A DNA stretch of 64,000 nt. Source: a virus. The position numbers and the translations under genes were made by a program. This document shows positions 3 through 63,937 of this stretch, piece by piece; the first letter of the stretch is position 1, and each line of letters opens with the position of its first letter. The notes under the pieces were generated by a model. It saw only the letters and a list, made by a program, of their open reading frames with translations. It was not told the origin of the DNA and did no database searches. The stretch is taken from IMG/VR virus record IMGVR_UViG_3300034104_005580, positions 1-64,000 of that record. One strand, written 5' to 3'.

Positions 3-656
3 AGGGCGAGCCTCCGGAACCTCCTCCGGATGGAGCAGCGGGGGCTTCGGCCGATCCCGGTCATCCACGTCGGCTCCGACCCGGAGGAGGTGCGCCGCTA
101 CAAGGCTCGCGGGTACGCCTACCAGTGCCTGGGAGGGATGGTGCCCCACCTCACGGCGATGTCCCAGGCCCTTCGGAGGGGCGCTCCCTCCGAGGTGGTG
201 ACGTGGGCCCGAGCGTGCCACGAGGTGGCCGCCGAGGAAGGGGTGAAGCTCCACGGCTTCGGGGCGACCAACTTCCAGGTCATGCTCGGCCTTCCCTGGC
301 ACTCGGTGGACTCCAGCTCGTGGGCCGCCGGCTTCCGGTTCGGCAACGTCTACGCCTTCGACCCGGTGGCCGGGAAGTGGGTCACGATGGTCCTCCGGGA
401 CACCCAGGGGATCATGCGGCAGGCGGCCCTCCTCCGCTTCTACGGAGTGGACCCCCTCTCCCTCGTGAAGGACGGGATGGACTCGCGGGTGGTGATGATC
501 ACCGTGGCCGCCCGCTCCTTCCTCGTGGCCCTCCGGTGGCTTCGGGCTCGTGGCCGTCCGGGCTTCCAGCTCTACCTCGCGGACTCGGTGGCCGCTGGAA
601 CCGACGCCCGTATCTACTCCCTCGCCCTCTCGCGCTCGCCCGAGTGGGTAGACTGA
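3..656 (+). CDS. dpdA: DpdA-like DNA 7-deazaguanine transglycosylase, C-terminal part (partial at window edge)
   Basis: The reading frame is open to the left edge, so only the last 217 residues are visible and the true start lies upstream. The ATG at 30 is internal: the preceding in-frame residues continue the same fold. The segment PIPVIHVGSD, the glycine-rich CLGGMVPH and the stretch HGFGATN...LPWHSVDSSSW match the TIM-barrel of tRNA-guanine transglycosylase relatives used by phages. The Asp in SVDSSSW corresponds to the expected catalytic nucleophile. Family members exchange guanine in DNA for a 7-deazaguanine such as preQ0 or a derivative. The next two genes (ParB-like, QueD) are the usual companions, which strongly supports a DNA rather than tRNA role. 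The fine subtype and the final base cannot be read from this fragment. Confidence 0.82.
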   Translation, partial: RASLRNLLRMEQRGLRPIPVIHVGSDPEEVRRYKARGYAYQCLGGMVPHLTAMSQALRRGAPSEVVTWARACHEVAAEEGVKLHGFGATNFQVMLGLPWHSVDSSSWAAGFRFGNVYAFDPVAGKWVTMVLRDTQGIMRQAALLRFYGVDPLSLVKDGMDSRVVMITVAARSFLVALRWLRARGRPGFQLYLADSVAAGTDARIYSLALSRSPEWVD

Positions 657-673
657 ACCTCCAGGAGCCTCCC

Positions 674-1546
674 ATGCAGATCGTCACCCTCGCCCTCGCC
701 TCCCTCGTCCCCTTCGCGGAGAACCCCCGCAAGGCGGACTCCGGGGACCACGATGCCCTTCTGGCCTCGATCAAGGCGTTCGGCATCTTCAAGCCCTCCC
801 TGATCTGGCAGGGGACCGACCATCCGGAGGGGGTCACCGGGCCCATCGTGATCGGCGGGAACCAGCGGTATCACACCCTCCGGGCGGCGATGGATGCGGG
901 GCTCTTCAAGGATGGCCCCCTCCAGGTGGAGCTTCGGAGCGGGGCGGTGGTCACCGTGGACCCGGGGGCGATCCCCTGCGTGGCCTTCCCCGGCTCGTGG
1001 GCGGAGGCCAAGGTGGTGGCCCTCCGGGACAACGCCCAGGAGGGGGAGTGGGACTGGGATGCCCTGCCCTCCTACGTGAAGGACCTGGAGGTGGCCTTCC
1101 CCGAAGGCGTGGACCTCACCCTCACCGGCTTCGACGCCCAGACCTTGAAGGACCTGGAGGCCCTGGCCACGGACCCCCTCGTGGGACTCGACCGGATCGG
1201 CGGTGGGACCGGAGTGCCGGTGGAGGGGGCAGGCACCGAGCCCGCCGCCGGTGGGGGTGGCACCTCCCAGCCCGCCGGTGGGGACAAGGACACCTCCGCC
1301 CTCACGCGCCAGGGGGCCCGGGTGGTGATCGGCAACATCCGGGGGAAGGTGCCCGTGGCGCTCTACGAGCGGCTGGCCACCGTGATCAAGACCTCCTCCG
1401 GGCGGCTCGGCACCACCGACCTCACGCCCATCCTGGAGGACTGGGTGACCACCCTGGAGAAGCACGAGGTGGCGAAGGCCCCGAAGCCGAAGGCCCCGAA
1501 GGGTGGCGAGAAGGGGAAGGACGAGAAGGGTGGGGGTGCCTCGTGA
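674..1546 (+). CDS. ParB/Srx-fold nuclease-like protein associated with DpdA
   Basis: 290 residues starting at an ATG preceded by CAGGAGCCTCCC. The N-terminal half is a ParB-like domain: LVPFAENPRK (about residues 11-20), IKAFGIFKPSLIW, then GGNQRYHTLRAA, the usual G-x-x-R signature. A Gly/Ser/Pro linker (about 175-205) is followed by a short second domain and a Lys/Pro-rich basic tail (about 265-290) that could contact DNA. ParB-like proteins are often encoded beside phage dpdA; their role there is not settled and could be DNA binding, nicking or NTP-dependent loading. It lies 17 bases after dpdA and overlaps queD by 4 bases, so the three are almost certainly co-expressed. It is not a partition ParB: no ParA and no parS sites are visible. 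Confidence 0.75.
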   Translation: MQIVTLALASLVPFAENPRKADSGDHDALLASIKAFGIFKPSLIWQGTDHPEGVTGPIVIGGNQRYHTLRAAMDAGLFKDGPLQVELRSGAVVTVDPGAIPCVAFPGSWAEAKVVALRDNAQEGEWDWDALPSYVKDLEVAFPEGVDLTLTGFDAQTLKDLEALATDPLVGLDRIGGGTGVPVEGAGTEPAAGGGGTSQPAGGDKDTSALTRQGARVVIGNIRGKVPVALYERLATVIKTSSGRLGTTDLTPILEDWVTTLEKHEVAKAPKPKAPKGGEKGKDEKGGGAS

Positions 1547-1968
1547 TCGAAGCCACCCGCCGGATCGGCATCGACGCGGGCCACCGGGTGACCCGCCACG
1601 AGAGCAAGTGTCGCCACGTCCACGGTCACCGCTACGAGGTGGAGGTGACCGTGGTGGCCCCGGAGCTGGACAACGCGGGCCGGGTGGTGGACTTCGGCCG
1701 CTTGAAGGAGGTGGTGGGAGGCTGGCTCCTGGAGAAGCTCGATCACGGGTACATCGCGGCCCCGTGGGATGGGGTGGCGGACCACCTGGAGGCCCAGGGC
1801 TTGAAGGTCTACCGGATGCCCCTCACGCAGGAGCCCACCGCCGAGAACATCGCCGCCCACGTCCTGGAGGTGGCCCAGTACCTCCTGGGAGAGCCCTTCA
1901 CCGTGACCCGGGTGCGGGTCTACGAGACGCCCAACTGCTGGGCCGATGCCACTCCAGGGAGGCCATGA
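1543..1968 (+). CDS. queD: 6-carboxy-5,6,7,8-tetrahydropterin synthase (QueD)
   Basis: 141 residues from a GTG that overlaps the preceding stop (GTGA). QueD turns 7,8-dihydroneopterin triphosphate into 6-carboxytetrahydropterin, the second step towards preQ0. The family marks are all present: His14 in DAGHRV, then C23-R-H-V-H27-G-H29, giving the catalytic Cys and the zinc histidines, VVDFGRLK (about 52-59), LDHGYI with a conserved His, and PTAENIAAHV near residue 98. Length is normal for the family. With dpdA and the parB-like gene it supplies precursor for base replacement in phage DNA. FolE, QueE and QueC are not in the window; they could lie upstream or be supplied by the host. Confidence 0.9.
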   Translation: MIEATRRIGIDAGHRVTRHESKCRHVHGHRYEVEVTVVAPELDNAGRVVDFGRLKEVVGGWLLEKLDHGYIAAPWDGVADHLEAQGLKVYRMPLTQEPTAENIAAHVLEVAQYLLGEPFTVTRVRVYETPNCWADATPGRP

Positions 1969-2606
1969 TGGGACTCGCTCGCTGGGACCTTCTGGATGCC
2001 CTCGCCCGCCGCCTGGGAGCCCTGCGCTACCTGGAGGTGGGGGTCCAGAACGGGGACTGCTTCGGGAAGGTGAGGGTGGCCGAGAAGGTGGGGGTGGACC
2101 CCGTGAAGGGGACGGCCGCCACGATCAATCTCACGTCGGACGCCTACTTCGCCCAACTCCCGAAGGAGGAGCGGTTCGATCTGGTCTTCGTGGACGGGCT
2201 TCACCACCGGGATCAGGTCCATCGGGACATCCTGAACGCCTGGGAGCACCTCACTCCCGGCGGTGCCATCGTGGTCCACGATTGCGACCCCCCGAACGAG
2301 GCCGCCGGCTCGCGCGCCCAGTGCGGGGGTATCTGGTGCGGGGACGTGTGGCGCGGGTGGATGGATGCCCGCCGCTCCCTCGCGGGCCGGGCCTACCTGG
2401 GGGTGGTGGCCACGGACCTCGGATGCGGGCTCGTGCTCCCCCTCGGAGAGGGCCGGGTGGAGGTGCCCCCGCCCTGGTCGGTGGAGGAGACCGACCGAGC
2501 CACTTGGGACTTCTTCGCCCACCGGCGGGCCCAGTGGCTGAACACGATCCACCCCGACGCCTTCCACGCCCTCGTGGAGACCCTCGCTCCCCTCCGGAAG
2601 GAATAG
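1965..2606 (+). CDS. Class I SAM-dependent methyltransferase (Methyltransf_24-like)
   Basis: 213 residues; ATG overlaps the queD stop (ATGA). A Rossmann SAM site is visible: YLEVGVQNGDCF (motif I, about residues 21-32), an acidic residue at VGVDPVKG, FDLVFVDGLHH (motif IV, about 66-76) and GGAIVVHDCDPP (about 93-104). The FVDG-LHH plus VVHDC pattern is typical of O-methyltransferases acting on sugars or small molecules, not of DNA cytosine or adenine enzymes (no NPPY or PC motif). It might methylate a glycan or a modified-base intermediate. Tight coupling to queD is the only contextual clue. Confidence 0.7.
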   Translation: MMGLARWDLLDALARRLGALRYLEVGVQNGDCFGKVRVAEKVGVDPVKGTAATINLTSDAYFAQLPKEERFDLVFVDGLHHRDQVHRDILNAWEHLTPGGAIVVHDCDPPNEAAGSRAQCGGIWCGDVWRGWMDARRSLAGRAYLGVVATDLGCGLVLPLGEGRVEVPPPWSVEETDRATWDFFAHRRAQWLNTIHPDAFHALVETLAPLRKE

Positions 2607-3128
2607 ATGCACGGCGAGATTCTGGCTTTCCTTCGGTCGGCCCGGGTGGAGTCCAAGCTGCCCCCCCTCGGCTCCCTTCGGGTGGTGGAGCTTGGCTCCA
2701 TCGTCATGCACGGCTCCCCCCGGGAGGTCTTCACCGGGGCGGCATCCTACGTGGGCGTGGACTGGAGGGCTGGCCCAGGGGTGGACGTGGTGGCCCTGGC
2801 CCACGAGGCCCCCGTGGAGGAGGCCGACGTGGTCGTGTGCTGTCAGATGTTGGAGCACGATCCCCACTGGGAGAAGACCGTGGCGAAGGCGTGCTCCCTC
2901 CTCCGGCGAGGTGGGTGGCTCTTCGCGACGTGGGCGGGCCCCGGGTACAACCCCCACGAGCTGGAGACCGCTCCTCCGTGGGAGGGGGCGGGCCCCTACT
3001 ATCGGAACCTCTCGGTGGAGGAGGTGGCCGAGGTGGTGCGGAGGTGGGCTCCTCCGGGGACCGAGGTGGTGACCCGCTACGGCCGTGGCACCCTCGACGC
3101 CCTGTTGTGGGCGAGGCTCCCAGCGTGA
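2607..3128 (+). CDS. SAM-dependent methyltransferase (Methyltransf_11-like)
   Basis: 173 residues, ATG directly abutting the stop of the previous methyltransferase. LRVVELGSIVMHGS gives a poorly conserved motif I (the GxGxG loop is reduced), YVGVDWRAGPGVD gives the acidic ribose-binding position, and VVVCCQMLEHDPHW (about 74-87) is the motif IV/V segment of type 11 methyltransferases, followed by LRRGGWLFATW. Substrate is unknown. It sits with the preceding enzyme as a pair, so the two may act in sequence, possibly on a sugar linked to the epimerase and glycosyltransferase further right, or on a base modification. The weak glycine loop lowers certainty of activity. Confidence 0.62.
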   Translation: MHGEILAFLRSARVESKLPPLGSLRVVELGSIVMHGSPREVFTGAASYVGVDWRAGPGVDVVALAHEAPVEEADVVVCCQMLEHDPHWEKTVAKACSLLRRGGWLFATWAGPGYNPHELETAPPWEGAGPYYRNLSVEEVAEVVRRWAPPGTEVVTRYGRGTLDALLWARLPA

Positions 3129-5441: not shown

Positions 5442-6104
5442 GTGACCAAGCCGACTCACCGTGAAACCTGCCGGGCCATCGCCTCCCAGCTTCTCCGTGA
5501 GCCGTGGGCCGATGCCGTGTGCTGGGAGGTCGGAGTGGGTGGCCACCAGCTCGACGTGATCGGGGTGACCGCCACCTCCTCGGCGGAGAAGGAGGCCGCC
5601 CGGTGGGCCGCCTGGGAGAGCCGTGCTCGGTGGGCCACCTCCAGGGGGAGGGAGGCACCGGAGAAGCCCTCGCGGGTGGTCCCACGGGTGGGGGTGGTGG
5701 AGGTGAAGGTGAACCGCTCCGACCTCCAGGCCGGGCTTCGGAGGGGGCAGCTCGTGGAGTACGCCTCGGACCCGAAGGTCCAGGGCACCCACTTCTCCCT
5801 GGCCCTCTGGGAGGAGGTGCTGGTCCGGGCTCCAGGTGCCGCCGGGTGGTGGCGCTCCCAGGACCAGGAGGCCGCCCTGGAGGACCTCGGCCGGATGGGG
5901 GTCCCGGTCGGGTGGGGGATCATCCGGGTCCACCGATCCATGGGCCGGGACGGCACGCTCTACCTGGAGACCCTTCGGAGGCCCACGAGGCTCCGCCCTC
6001 CCCCTGACCTCGGCCACCGGCTCTCCCTCGTGGAGACGATGGCTCGCTCCCTGGCTTACCGAGTCCTCTCCCCCACGAGCCCCGAGCAGGAGCGCACCCC
6101 GTGA
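5442..6104 (+). CDS. PD-(D/E)XK nuclease-fold protein (MmcB-like)
   Basis: 220 residues from GTG. The nuclease-fold core is QLDVIGV (Asp at about residue 38) followed by VGVVEVKVNRSDLQAGLRRG (E-V-K at about 87-89), then a segment QLVEYASDPKVQGTHFSLAL resembling the YxxxxDxxxxAL tail of MmcB-like proteins that handle DNA repair or processing. A Trp-rich middle and a C-terminal helix follow. It overlaps the terminase gene by 4 bases (GTGA) and may take part in packaging or in DNA maintenance; no separate small terminase subunit is recognisable nearby. There is no ribosome site and the promoter ends 8 bases away. Confidence 0.55.
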   Translation: MTKPTHRETCRAIASQLLREPWADAVCWEVGVGGHQLDVIGVTATSSAEKEAARWAAWESRARWATSRGREAPEKPSRVVPRVGVVEVKVNRSDLQAGLRRGQLVEYASDPKVQGTHFSLALWEEVLVRAPGAAGWWRSQDQEAALEDLGRMGVPVGWGIIRVHRSMGRDGTLYLETLRRPTRLRPPPDLGHRLSLVETMARSLAYRVLSPTSPEQERTP

Positions 6105-7807
6105 ACGATCTGGACCTCGCGGCGGAGAAGGTGGCCCAGGGGTGGGCGACCATCGGAGAGGACTACCCCCTGATCGGGCAGGCCGTGAGGCTACACCGGA
6201 ACACCCGACGGGGGCCGATGTCCTTCCTGGCGAACCCGTCGCTGGTGGAGATGTATGCGGACTTCCCCAGGATCGACGGGGCGGACGTGTGTAAGGCCGT
6301 CCAGACCGGGGTGAGCGAGCTGGTGATCCAGCTTCACCTGGAGGCCGCCGGGTGGAGGGGGAGGATCGCCGCCCTCGTGCTCCCCACCTACGGCCTTCGG
6401 GACCGCTTCGTCCAGCGGCGGATCGATCCCCTCTTCCTGGCCGTGCCCGAGTACCGGGAGAAGGCCGGGGGCACCTTCTCGGTGGCACGCGATAAAGCGA
6501 GGAAAGGAGCGGGGAACCTAAAGCTAAAGGACTTCGGGGACGGGGCTCTCCTCTTCCTCGGCTCCAACGCGGACGGAGACTTCCTGGAGTTCTCGGCGGA
6601 CCTCCTCACGATTGACGAATACGATGGCTGCGTGCCCGCCAACGTGGCGAAGGCCCGAGACCGCCTCCGCAACTCGCCATACCCCCAGCTCTTCCGGATC
6701 GGGAACCCGGAGGAGGGGAAGGTGGACGGGATCGCGGCGGCCTTTGAAGAGGGGGACCGCCGCCTCTTCCACTGGCGGTGCGGAGGGTGCGGCGAGCGCC
6801 AGCCCATCGACTGGTGGGCCAACGTGGTCCACCGGCTGGGGGACGGCACCTGGGAGCCGAGGGACGTGGCTCGCTATCGTGGCCTCCTCCAGAACCCCCG
6901 GGGCCCGGACATCCGGCCGGTCTGCCGGAAGTGCTCGTGCCCCTTCAATCGCGATCCCCGTGGCTCCTCGTGGGTGGCCGAGCGCCCTGGTCGCCGCCGC
7001 TCCTACCGGATGACCCGCCTGGACGTGATCACGGATCGGCTCTGGGACCTCTTCGTCCTGGAGTGGCTTCCGGCCCAGGGGAAGAGGGTGAAGCTCGCCA
7101 CCTTCTACCGCTCCGTGCTCGGCCTCTCCTACCAGGACGCCGGAGCCCAGCTCACGATGGAGCACCTGGAGGCGTGCGCCACGGGCCCGGATATGGACCT
7201 GATCGGTGGGGACGCCTATCGCTCGGAGCTGGTGGTGGCGGGCATCGACGTGGGCTCCGTCCTGAACGTGGTGATCGACGCCATCCACCTGGACGAGAAG
7301 GGGGCGAGCTACCGGCGCTCCCTCCTGATCACGGCGGTCCCTTCTTTTGAGGCGGTGCGGGACCTCCTGAACCGCTACCACGTCCAGGTGGCCGTGATCG
7401 ACGCCCGCCCGGAGACCCGAAAGGCGCAGGAGCTGCGTGACTGGGCCCTCTACGAGCAGGGGCACACTTTCGTCTGGCTATGCCAGTTCTTCCCCACCGA
7501 CCGGGTGGGCTCGGAGGACTACGGGCGGCGGCTCGACTACACCGATCACGTCGTCACCGTGGACCGGACCCAGCTCCTGGACGCCACCTTCGATGAAGTG
7601 GTCGGCAGGGCGAGGGTGCTTCCCAGGGATGGCCTCTCGGTCTCGGACTTCGTGGACCAGATGAAGGCCCCCGCCCGAGTCCTGGACGAGAAGGGCTCCA
7701 GGTTTATCTGGAGCGAGGGGAGCAAGCCCGACCACTACAGGCTGGCCGACGCCTACGCCCGGGTGGCCGCCGACCTGACCCAGGTGGGGGGTAGCTTCGT
7801 GGGGTGA
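6101..7807 (+). CDS. terL: Terminase large subunit, GpA family
   Basis: 568 residues, GTG overlapping the previous stop. The ATPase that drives DNA into proheads and cuts the genome. A deviant Walker A, KAVQTGVSE (about residues 65-73), matches the K-x-x-Q-x-G-x-S-E form of lambda gpA. Walker B is LLTIDEYD (169-175). Two Cys pairs, CGGCGERQ (about 226-233) and CRKCSCPFN (about 276-284), form the zinc insert typical of GpA proteins. The nuclease domain begins at VAGIDVGS (about 380), with later acidic positions in VAVIDARPETR. Length is slightly short of lambda gpA. Context upstream of portal and protease is as expected. Confidence 0.9.
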   Translation: MNDLDLAAEKVAQGWATIGEDYPLIGQAVRLHRNTRRGPMSFLANPSLVEMYADFPRIDGADVCKAVQTGVSELVIQLHLEAAGWRGRIAALVLPTYGLRDRFVQRRIDPLFLAVPEYREKAGGTFSVARDKARKGAGNLKLKDFGDGALLFLGSNADGDFLEFSADLLTIDEYDGCVPANVAKARDRLRNSPYPQLFRIGNPEEGKVDGIAAAFEEGDRRLFHWRCGGCGERQPIDWWANVVHRLGDGTWEPRDVARYRGLLQNPRGPDIRPVCRKCSCPFNRDPRGSSWVAERPGRRRSYRMTRLDVITDRLWDLFVLEWLPAQGKRVKLATFYRSVLGLSYQDAGAQLTMEHLEACATGPDMDLIGGDAYRSELVVAGIDVGSVLNVVIDAIHLDEKGASYRRSLLITAVPSFEAVRDLLNRYHVQVAVIDARPETRKAQELRDWALYEQGHTFVWLCQFFPTDRVGSEDYGRRLDYTDHVVTVDRTQLLDATFDEVVGRARVLPRDGLSVSDFVDQMKAPARVLDEKGSRFIWSEGSKPDHYRLADAYARVAADLTQVGGSFVG

Positions 7808-63075: not shown

Positions 63076-63218
63076 CCATCCACCCACTCCCGCCGCCGCC
63101 CGAGCCGCCGCCCGACCTCACGAAGGCCCGAGCCGTGGTCCACCTCGGCTGCGCGGCCTTCCTTGTCCTCGCCGGCCTGGGGATCGCCCTCGGTGGCCTC
63201 TCCATGGTGCTCCGGTGA
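63072..63218 (+). CDS. Small single-pass membrane protein, 48 aa
   Basis: GTG overlapping the previous stop (GTGA). A Pro-rich start (IHPLPPPPEPPPDL) then one membrane helix (VVHLGCAAFLVLAGLGIALGGLSMVL, about 22-47). Beside the tiny lipoprotein, it might be the inner-membrane partner of a two-part envelope pair; this is inference from pairing only. Confidence 0.52.
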   Translation: MTIHPLPPPPEPPPDLTKARAVVHLGCAAFLVLAGLGIALGGLSMVLR

Positions 63219-63937
63219 GCGGCGACGAGAGGAACCCGCACGAGCGGCACGGCTCGGCCACCGATGTCCCTGGTGTCATCCTTCGTGGGATCGGGCGGTA
63301 CCCGATCACCGAGAAGATGCGATGGCGGACCCCGCCCTGGCTCTACCGGGTCCTGGACGAGGAGTTCCACTTCGACCTGGACGCCTGCGCGGAGGATGGG
63401 TGCCACCTCGCCCGCCGGTGGATCACCCACGAGGAGGACGCCCTGGAGGTGGACTGGCGGGTCAAGTTCCGCCAGCGGTTCGGTGGAGACCGGGACGACT
63501 ACCTCTCCGGGGAGGTGCAGGTGGTGGAGCTGGAGCCCGAGGGGCACTCCCCCGTGCGCTCGGCCTTCCTCAACCCCCCGTGGGCGGCCCTGGGGCTCCC
63601 GAAGTGGGTGAAGGAGCAGGACCCCACCCTCTCGTGGAGCGCCTTCCCAGGCACCGGGAAGTTCGTGGAGCGTGCCTGGGAGATGTCCAGGCTGGGGGTC
63701 ACCTCGGCGGTGCTCCTCCCCCAGGCGATGGACGCCGCGTGGTTCAAGCCGCTCGTGAAGAAGGCCGACGAGGTCCGGATCGGGCGGCGCTTCAAGTTCC
63801 AGGATTGCCACGGGGTGGATGGGCCCCAGCCTCCGGGAGGGCACCTTCTCCTGGTCTTCCGCCCCCACGTCCCCCTGGAAGGGTGGCCGGGCGGCCCCCG
63901 GGTGGACTGGGACTGGAACCCGGCAGGTGAGCCGTGA
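63215..63937 (+). CDS. Phage DNA N6-adenine methyltransferase (Dam-like)
   Basis: 240 residues, GTG overlapping the previous stop. It follows the phage N6-MTase family pattern: RTPPWLYRVLDEEFHFDLDACAEDG (about 39-62), RRWITHEEDALEVDW, SAFLNPPWAALGLPKWVKEQ (NPPW catalytic motif at about 119-122) and GTGKFVERAWEMSRLGVTSAVLLP. The late GRRFKFQDCHGVDGPQPPGGHLLLVFRP is the usual end. It adds methyl to adenine in DNA, protecting against host nucleases. With dpdA it means two different DNA modifications may be made. Confidence 0.82.
   Translation: MSGDERNPHERHGSATDVPGVILRGIGRYPITEKMRWRTPPWLYRVLDEEFHFDLDACAEDGCHLARRWITHEEDALEVDWRVKFRQRFGGDRDDYLSGEVQVVELEPEGHSPVRSAFLNPPWAALGLPKWVKEQDPTLSWSAFPGTGKFVERAWEMSRLGVTSAVLLPQAMDAAWFKPLVKKADEVRIGRRFKFQDCHGVDGPQPPGGHLLLVFRPHVPLEGWPGGPRVDWDWNPAGEP

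What the first reader, a model, noticed from the sequence alone, without database searches (positions are those of the whole stretch)
3..1968. 7-deazaguanine DNA modification block in a siphovirus: DpdA-like, ParB-like and QueD
Seen: three coupled genes, a TGT-like barrel end with a candidate Asp nucleophile, a ParB-like protein, and QueD with intact Cys and zinc His. Known: phage DpdA enzymes put preQ0 or derivatives in place of guanine in DNA, which blocks host restriction. The exact base here cannot be read because folE, queE, queC and any base-editing partners would lie outside. Two SAM methyltransferases follow directly and could be part of the route.
Basis: partly seen in the sequence, partly recalled or inferred. 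Interest (0 to 1): 0.75.

Follow-up and report, generated by a model that had tools for sequence, protein, structure and literature searches.

The report
Phage cassette swapping guanine in DNA
A long-tailed phage, perhaps of myxobacteria, carries the visible half of a known kind of gene cassette that replaces some guanines in its DNA with an altered base to evade host restriction; its relatives use the same genome region for four different DNA-modification chemistries, usually beside a ParB-like protein.

Summary
Window 3-1968 holds the last 217 codons of a phage DpdA (DNA-guanine transglycosylase), a ParB-like (DpdB-type) gene and an intact queD, in one tightly packed run.

The core interpretation holds: this is a phage 7-deazaguanine DNA-modification cassette of the known DpdA/ParB type. 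The record (64,007 b) is cut inside it. Two related contigs continue across the window's ends, and one of them (G003) carries queE-folE-queC directly in front of dpdA-parB-queD. In 38 dpdA loci with at least 4 kb on both sides, all 36 with queD also have folE and queE, and 31 have queC. The missing genes are therefore most likely in the gap, and dPreQ0 is the most likely base.

The two methyltransferases are probably not part of the route: both occur side by side (66% and 63% identity) in a 75-kb relative that has no dpdA and instead has a cytosine C5-methyltransferase.

Beyond the finding: in this terminase family the modification region carries a ParB-like gene with DpdA, a C5-cytosine methyltransferase, an N4/N6 methyltransferase (fused), or Mom. 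ParB looks like a reusable DNA-handling partner. One relative lies in a Myxococcales MAG.

Verdict: new member of a known kind.

The parts
3..656 (+). dpdA, 3' part (217 codons; start codon and about 88 N-terminal residues lie off the contig); predicted DNA-guanine transglycosylase, nucleophile candidate Asp103 of the fragment
674..1546 (+). ParB-like (DpdB-type) protein, 290 aa; ParB-CTPase fold with GGNQR phosphate motif, disordered linker and C-terminal helices
1543..1968 (+). queD, 6-carboxytetrahydropterin synthase, 141 aa, catalytic Cys and zinc His present; overlaps parB by 4 bases
1965..2606 (+). SAM methyltransferase 1 (Pfam Methyltransf_24); coupled to queD but conserved in relatives with other DNA-modification enzymes; probably not part of the deazaguanine route
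2607..3128 (+). SAM methyltransferase 2 (Pfam Methyltransf_23); also in relatives G008 and G018, which lack dpdA; probably not part of the route
6101..7807 (+). terminase large subunit: anchor used to define the phage family
55972..58107 (+). primase/helicase of the replication module that directly precedes the modification region in relatives G003 and G008
63215..63937 (+). Dam-like adenine methyltransferase at the right edge of the record; in G008 its homologue lies about 6.6 kb before the homologue of methyltransferase 2, joining the window's two ends

Best explanation
The block is the right-hand part of a phage 7-deazaguanine DNA-modification cassette whose left part (the dpdA start and most probably queE, folE and queC) lies in the gap between the two ends of this linear record of a circularly permuted genome. 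FolE, QueD, QueE and QueC turn GTP into preQ0 (QueD makes 6-carboxytetrahydropterin). DpdA then cuts the glycosidic bond of chosen guanines in phage DNA through its Asp nucleophile and puts preQ0 in their place. The ParB-like protein binds a nucleotide and helps DpdA act on DNA, by loading or targeting it. The resulting dPreQ0 blocks host restriction enzymes. Shown here: the three genes, their conserved residues, the gene order in relatives and the continuity of relatives across the break. Inferred: the missing genes, the base, the role of ParB and the protection.
For: Homology and residues. Cassette order in named phages (ParB-DpdA-(QueC)-QueD-QueE-FolE just before the terminase). Closest relatives: L011/L012 with QueE-FolE-QueD-DpdA-ParB-QueC-DpdA-ParB, and L013 (G003) with QueE-FolE-QueC-DpdA-ParB-QueD, the window's order. 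38 loci with at least 4 kb on both sides of dpdA: 36 with QueD, all 36 with FolE and QueE, 31 with QueC. The break: G008 runs from homologues of the window's right-end genes through to its left-end genes, and in G003 the replication genes precede the cassette. No FolE, QueC, QueF or DpdC family match elsewhere in the record, and no FolE, QueC or QueE by home-made profiles. Literature: DpdA is essential for the base in phage CAjan, and FolE+QueD+QueE+QueC+DpdA phages (CAjan, Rosebush) carry dPreQ0 that resists restriction enzymes (PMC6884629); DpdB is a ParB-superfamily protein generally present with DpdA (PMC6392294).
Against: No record shows folE, queE and queC for this very phage; G003 is only 42% identical in DpdA. 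The DpdA fragment lacks the half of the barrel with the first catalytic Asp. Its model (pLDDT 92) matches several TIM barrels better than TGT (TGT 5v3c is rank 44, E 0.11), and the profile match to the solved DNA-guanine transglycosylase 7UI4 is weak (0.067). Phages with dpdA but no detected base exist (Orion, PMC6884629).
Confidence: 0.88

Rival explanations
1. The phage encodes only dpdA, parB and queD and relies on the host for FolE, QueE and QueC; queD just boosts flux.
For: The 64,007-base record has no FolE or QueC family match, nor FolE, QueC or QueE by home-made profiles; host participation in phage DNA modification is discussed in PMC6884629.
Against: None of 36 queD-bearing dpdA loci with full flanks lacks folE or queE; the record is cut exactly at dpdA, and G003, with the same order, has queE-folE-queC on the missing side.
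Confidence: 0.07
2. The block makes a further-edited 7-deazaguanine (for example a methylated one), with methyltransferase 1 or 2 as the editing enzyme.
For: Methyltransferase 1 overlaps queD by 4 bases, and a homologue (49%) lies directly after a second dpdA in G003. From memory, not checked in a source held here: methylated preQ1 has been reported in other phage DNA.
Against: Both methyltransferases occur side by side in G018, which has no DpdA but a C5-cytosine methyltransferase. Methyltransferase 1 also follows a ParB-N4/N6 methyltransferase in L107, a 13-kb record without DpdA. Methyltransferase 2 is in G008 without DpdA. No QueF was found in the record.
Confidence: 0.08
3. A tRNA-directed TGT/queuosine booster, not DNA modification.
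For: PHROG annotation reads 'queuine tRNA-ribosyltransferase'.
Against: No CxCxxC zinc motif in the fragment or in seven full-length relatives; the nearest matches are phage DpdA; dpdA is adjacent to parB in 41 of 59 dpdA genes not close to a contig end, an arrangement of DNA-modification enzymes.
Confidence: 0.03

Closest known systems
Mycobacterium phages Bipper and Typha cassette (ParB - small gene - DpdA - small gene - QueD - QueE - FolE, upstream of terminase)
   Same: DpdA (38%), ParB-like and QueD, located just before the terminase
   Different: Order is parB-dpdA, not dpdA-parB; no queC there; the window has two methyltransferases in place of queE-folE downstream of queD
Rosebush-type cluster B mycobacteriophages (Hedgerow, CRB2, Saguaro): ParB/regulator - DpdA - QueC - QueD - QueE - FolE
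   Same: Same enzyme set; dPreQ0 measured in Rosebush DNA (PMC6884629)
   Different: Distant sequence (DpdA 30-32%); different order; different phage family
Uncultured phage contigs L011/L012 and L013 (G003)
   Same: Closest DpdA (46% and 42%) and ParB (55% and 36%); G003 has the same dpdA-parB-queD order; both share structural or replication genes with the window
   Different: They carry queE/folE/queC in view and a second dpdA; L011 also has a second parB
Bacterial Dpd system (DpdA with DpdB, a ParB-like ATPase; DpdC)
   Same: Transglycosylase plus ParB-superfamily partner
   Different: Phage proteins are short and divergent; no DpdC-type PF03883 hit; no restriction genes seen next to it

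Membership tests
Phage DpdA (DNA-guanine transglycosylase) | Sequence homology to phage DpdA | tested here: met
   tblastn 2e-24 to Bipper DpdA; PHROG 887 and 7068
Phage DpdA (DNA-guanine transglycosylase) | Nucleophile Asp in the C-terminal half of the barrel | tested here: met
   D103 in VDSSSW, invariant in 30 sequences, aligned with SIDSTT of 7UI4 (weak match)
Phage DpdA (DNA-guanine transglycosylase) | First catalytic Asp (DSG motif) in the N-terminal half | not testable with these tools
   Off the contig; present in all close relatives
Phage DpdA (DNA-guanine transglycosylase) | Inserts 7-deazaguanine into DNA | not testable with these tools
   Needs LC-MS/MS or a plasmid assay
tRNA TGT | CxCxxC-H zinc site | tested here: not met
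   No Cys after the nucleophile in the fragment and no CxCxxC in it or in seven relatives
QueD (6-carboxytetrahydropterin synthase) | PTPS domain with catalytic Cys and zinc His residues | tested here: met
   PTPS 5e-31; Cys23, His14, His27, His29
DpdB/ParB-like partner | ParB-CTPase fold with Box II arginine | tested here: met
   Foldseek to ParB/Noc CTPases 7e-8 to 1e-5; GGNQR motif
DpdB/ParB-like partner | Nucleotide use and need for base insertion | not testable with these tools
Complete preQ0 cassette | FolE, QueE and QueC present | tested here: inconclusive
   Not found in the cut record; present at the missing side in relatives

The most novel reading that the evidence does not exclude
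In this phage family a ParB-type NTP-binding protein is a reusable DNA-handling subunit to which chemically unrelated base-modifying enzymes are plugged in turn: DpdA (deazaguanine), C5-cytosine methyltransferase, N4/N6 methyltransferase (by fusion) and Mom (adenine acylation). If so, ParB, not the chemistry, would set where and when phage DNA is modified, and phages with two DpdA-ParB pairs would have two target motifs.
Probability: 0.35. Interest if true: 0.65.

Novelty: new member of a known kind. Interest (0 to 1): 0.4.

Why it matters
The cassette itself extends known phage 7-deazaguanine modification to a long-tailed phage family with a hint of a myxobacterial host (one relative lies in a Myxococcales MAG). 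The wider value is a natural experiment: closely related phages keep a ParB-like gene near the terminase while its enzymatic partner changes chemistry. The function of ParB-like proteins beside phage DNA-modification enzymes is described as unknown (PMC12783734), so these sets offer matched pairs in which to test whether ParB sets target choice.

Tried and rejected
Close-relative scan of viral contigs with the DpdA fragment alone found nothing; a profile of phage DpdAs was needed. phmmer of the fragment against PDB gave only noise. The fold search of the DpdA fragment is uninformative because only half a barrel is present. The idea that the methyltransferases belong to the route was tested and largely rejected. 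The idea that the two contig ends overlap directly was rejected: about 88 codons of dpdA are missing and about 70 bases follow the last called gene. Whether the L107 ParB nests inside the DpdA-linked ParBs or is only sister to them is unresolved (AU p 0.43). Several key papers (Iyer 2013; Hutinet 2017 review) are not held.

Full report
WHAT IS THERE. The window is bases 1-64,000 of a 64,007-base linear virus record. At its left edge, on the + strand, lie the 3' part of dpdA (3-656), a ParB-like gene (674-1546), queD (1543-1968), a Methyltransf_24 gene (MT4; 1965-2606) and a Methyltransf_23 gene (MT5; 2607-3128). They are packed with a 17-base gap, two 4-base overlaps and one direct join. Terminase, portal, major head protein and a 1,506-aa tape-measure gene follow, so the phage is long-tailed.

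DpdA. The fragment matches PHROG 887 and 7068 at 1e-20 and 213 phage records, best Bipper at 38% and 2e-24. In an alignment of 30 relatives the motif around D103 (S-V-D-S-S-S-W), H22, G44 and the HGxG motif at H84 are invariant or nearly so. A profile of these sequences finds one PDB sequence, 7UI4 'DNA-guanine transglycosylase', weakly (0.067), with the DSGAF and SVDSS motifs in register with DCGAF and SIDSTT. There is no CxCxxC in the fragment or in seven relatives. About 88 residues are missing at the N-terminus. AlphaFold gives pLDDT 92, but a half barrel matches many TIM barrels, with TGT only at rank 44.

ParB and QueD. ParB: PHROG 723 at 1e-16; its profile hits Spo0J/Noc/ParB chains at 1e-11 to 3e-18; its model hits ParB and Noc CTPase structures. 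It keeps the GGNQR phosphate motif, whose Arg is needed for nucleotide binding in other ParB-fold proteins (PMC12704722). QueD: Pfam PTPS at 5e-31, with Cys23 and His14/27/29.

WHERE THE REST IS. A profile scan of viral contigs gave 80 dpdA loci, annotated with home-made profiles for FolE, QueD, QueE, QueC, ParB and DpdA. Of 38 with at least 4 kb on both sides of dpdA, 36 have queD; all 36 have folE and queE, and 31 have queC. The closest relatives are L011/L012 (QueE-FolE-QueD-DpdA-ParB-QueC-DpdA-ParB) and L013 (QueE-FolE-QueC-DpdA-ParB-QueD). The second has the window's order with the missing genes on the missing side. L013's record G003 (85.8 kb) also carries homologues of the window's replication genes just before the cassette and of its terminase after it. 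Record G008 (49.6 kb, terminase 59% identical) is colinear with the window's genes from the replication module and the right end through to MT5, g8 and the terminase. The window is therefore a linear cut of a genome that continues from its right end to its left end, broken inside the cassette. No FolE, QueC, QueF or PF03883 match is in the record. The QueCs of L011 and L013 are 247 and 255 aa, too short for a fused amidotransferase, so dPreQ0 is the best guess for the base, as measured in Rosebush and CAjan (PMC6884629).

THE TWO METHYLTRANSFERASES. Neither has a close homologue in any dpdA phage of the phage collection. A profile scan for MT4 gave eight contigs. G018 (75 kb) has both genes side by side (66% and 63%) with a C5-cytosine methyltransferase and a ParB-like gene, and no DpdA in the record (the DpdA profile rang in G001, G002 and G003 in the same search). 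L107 has MT4 after a ParB-N4/N6 methyltransferase fusion, and G008 has MT5 without DpdA. MT4 does follow a second dpdA in G003. Thus they travel with this phage family's modification/terminase region, not with deazaguanine.

A REGION WITH CHANGING CHEMISTRY. Terminase relatives and the contigs above show a ParB-like gene in the modification region with: DpdA (window, G001/G002, G003, L120/L121); a C5-cytosine methyltransferase (G008, overlapping ORFs; G018, not directly adjacent); an N4/N6 methyltransferase fused to ParB (L107=L119, L123); or a Mom protein overlapping parB by 4 bases (L131; Mom at Pfam 1e-22 and PHROG 3e-23). Some family members show no ParB in the DNA held (L126, L127, L129). 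In the ParB tree the window and the L011, L013, L014 and L107 ParBs form one strongly supported group (100/99), although L107's partner is a methyltransferase. Holding all DpdA-linked ParBs together is rejected (AU p about 1e-5). ParB and DpdA are thus not one fixed pair over long times. Known background: ParB folds fused to N4/N6 methyltransferases are common in phages (PMC12704722); ParB near CmoX is noted, with function unknown (PMC12783734); DpdB as a ParB-superfamily partner of DpdA is known (PMC6392294, PMC12839542). I found no held paper that describes exchange of all four chemistries around ParB within one phage family, but the library is partial and the key 2013 survey is not held.

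HOST. The only terminase relative among 84,980 species genomes lies in a 78-kb contig binned as a Myxococcales bacterium (51%). Binning of phage contigs is uncertain, so this is a hint only.

VERDICT. A genuine, truncated, ordinary phage 7-deazaguanine DNA-modification cassette: new member of a known kind. The ParB exchange pattern is the part worth a specialist's time.

Noticed in passing
L131:6340-7913 (-): A Mom-like adenine-modification gene (Pfam Mom 1.2e-22) overlaps a ParB-like gene by 4 bases, next to a terminase 51% identical to the window's, in a contig binned as Myxococcales.
   Followed up: partly
L011:5852-9826 and L101:10126-11043 (G003): Relatives carry a second, divergent dpdA with the catalytic motifs kept; in L011 it has its own ParB, in G003 it sits between the terminase and a homologue of MTase 1. 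Two target motifs or two bases are possible.
   Followed up: partly
window:63215-63937: A Dam-like N6-adenine methyltransferase (Pfam Dam 4e-15) lies at the right edge, so this phage may carry both modified G and modified A.
   Followed up: no
[quoted passage not shown]
   Followed up: no
window:17956-19077: Nucleotide-sugar epimerase-like gene (PHROG 540, 7e-70) among the structural genes.
   Followed up: no
L019 and L082: dpdA with ParB but without queD within 10 kb on either side; possible users of host-made preQ0.
   Followed up: no
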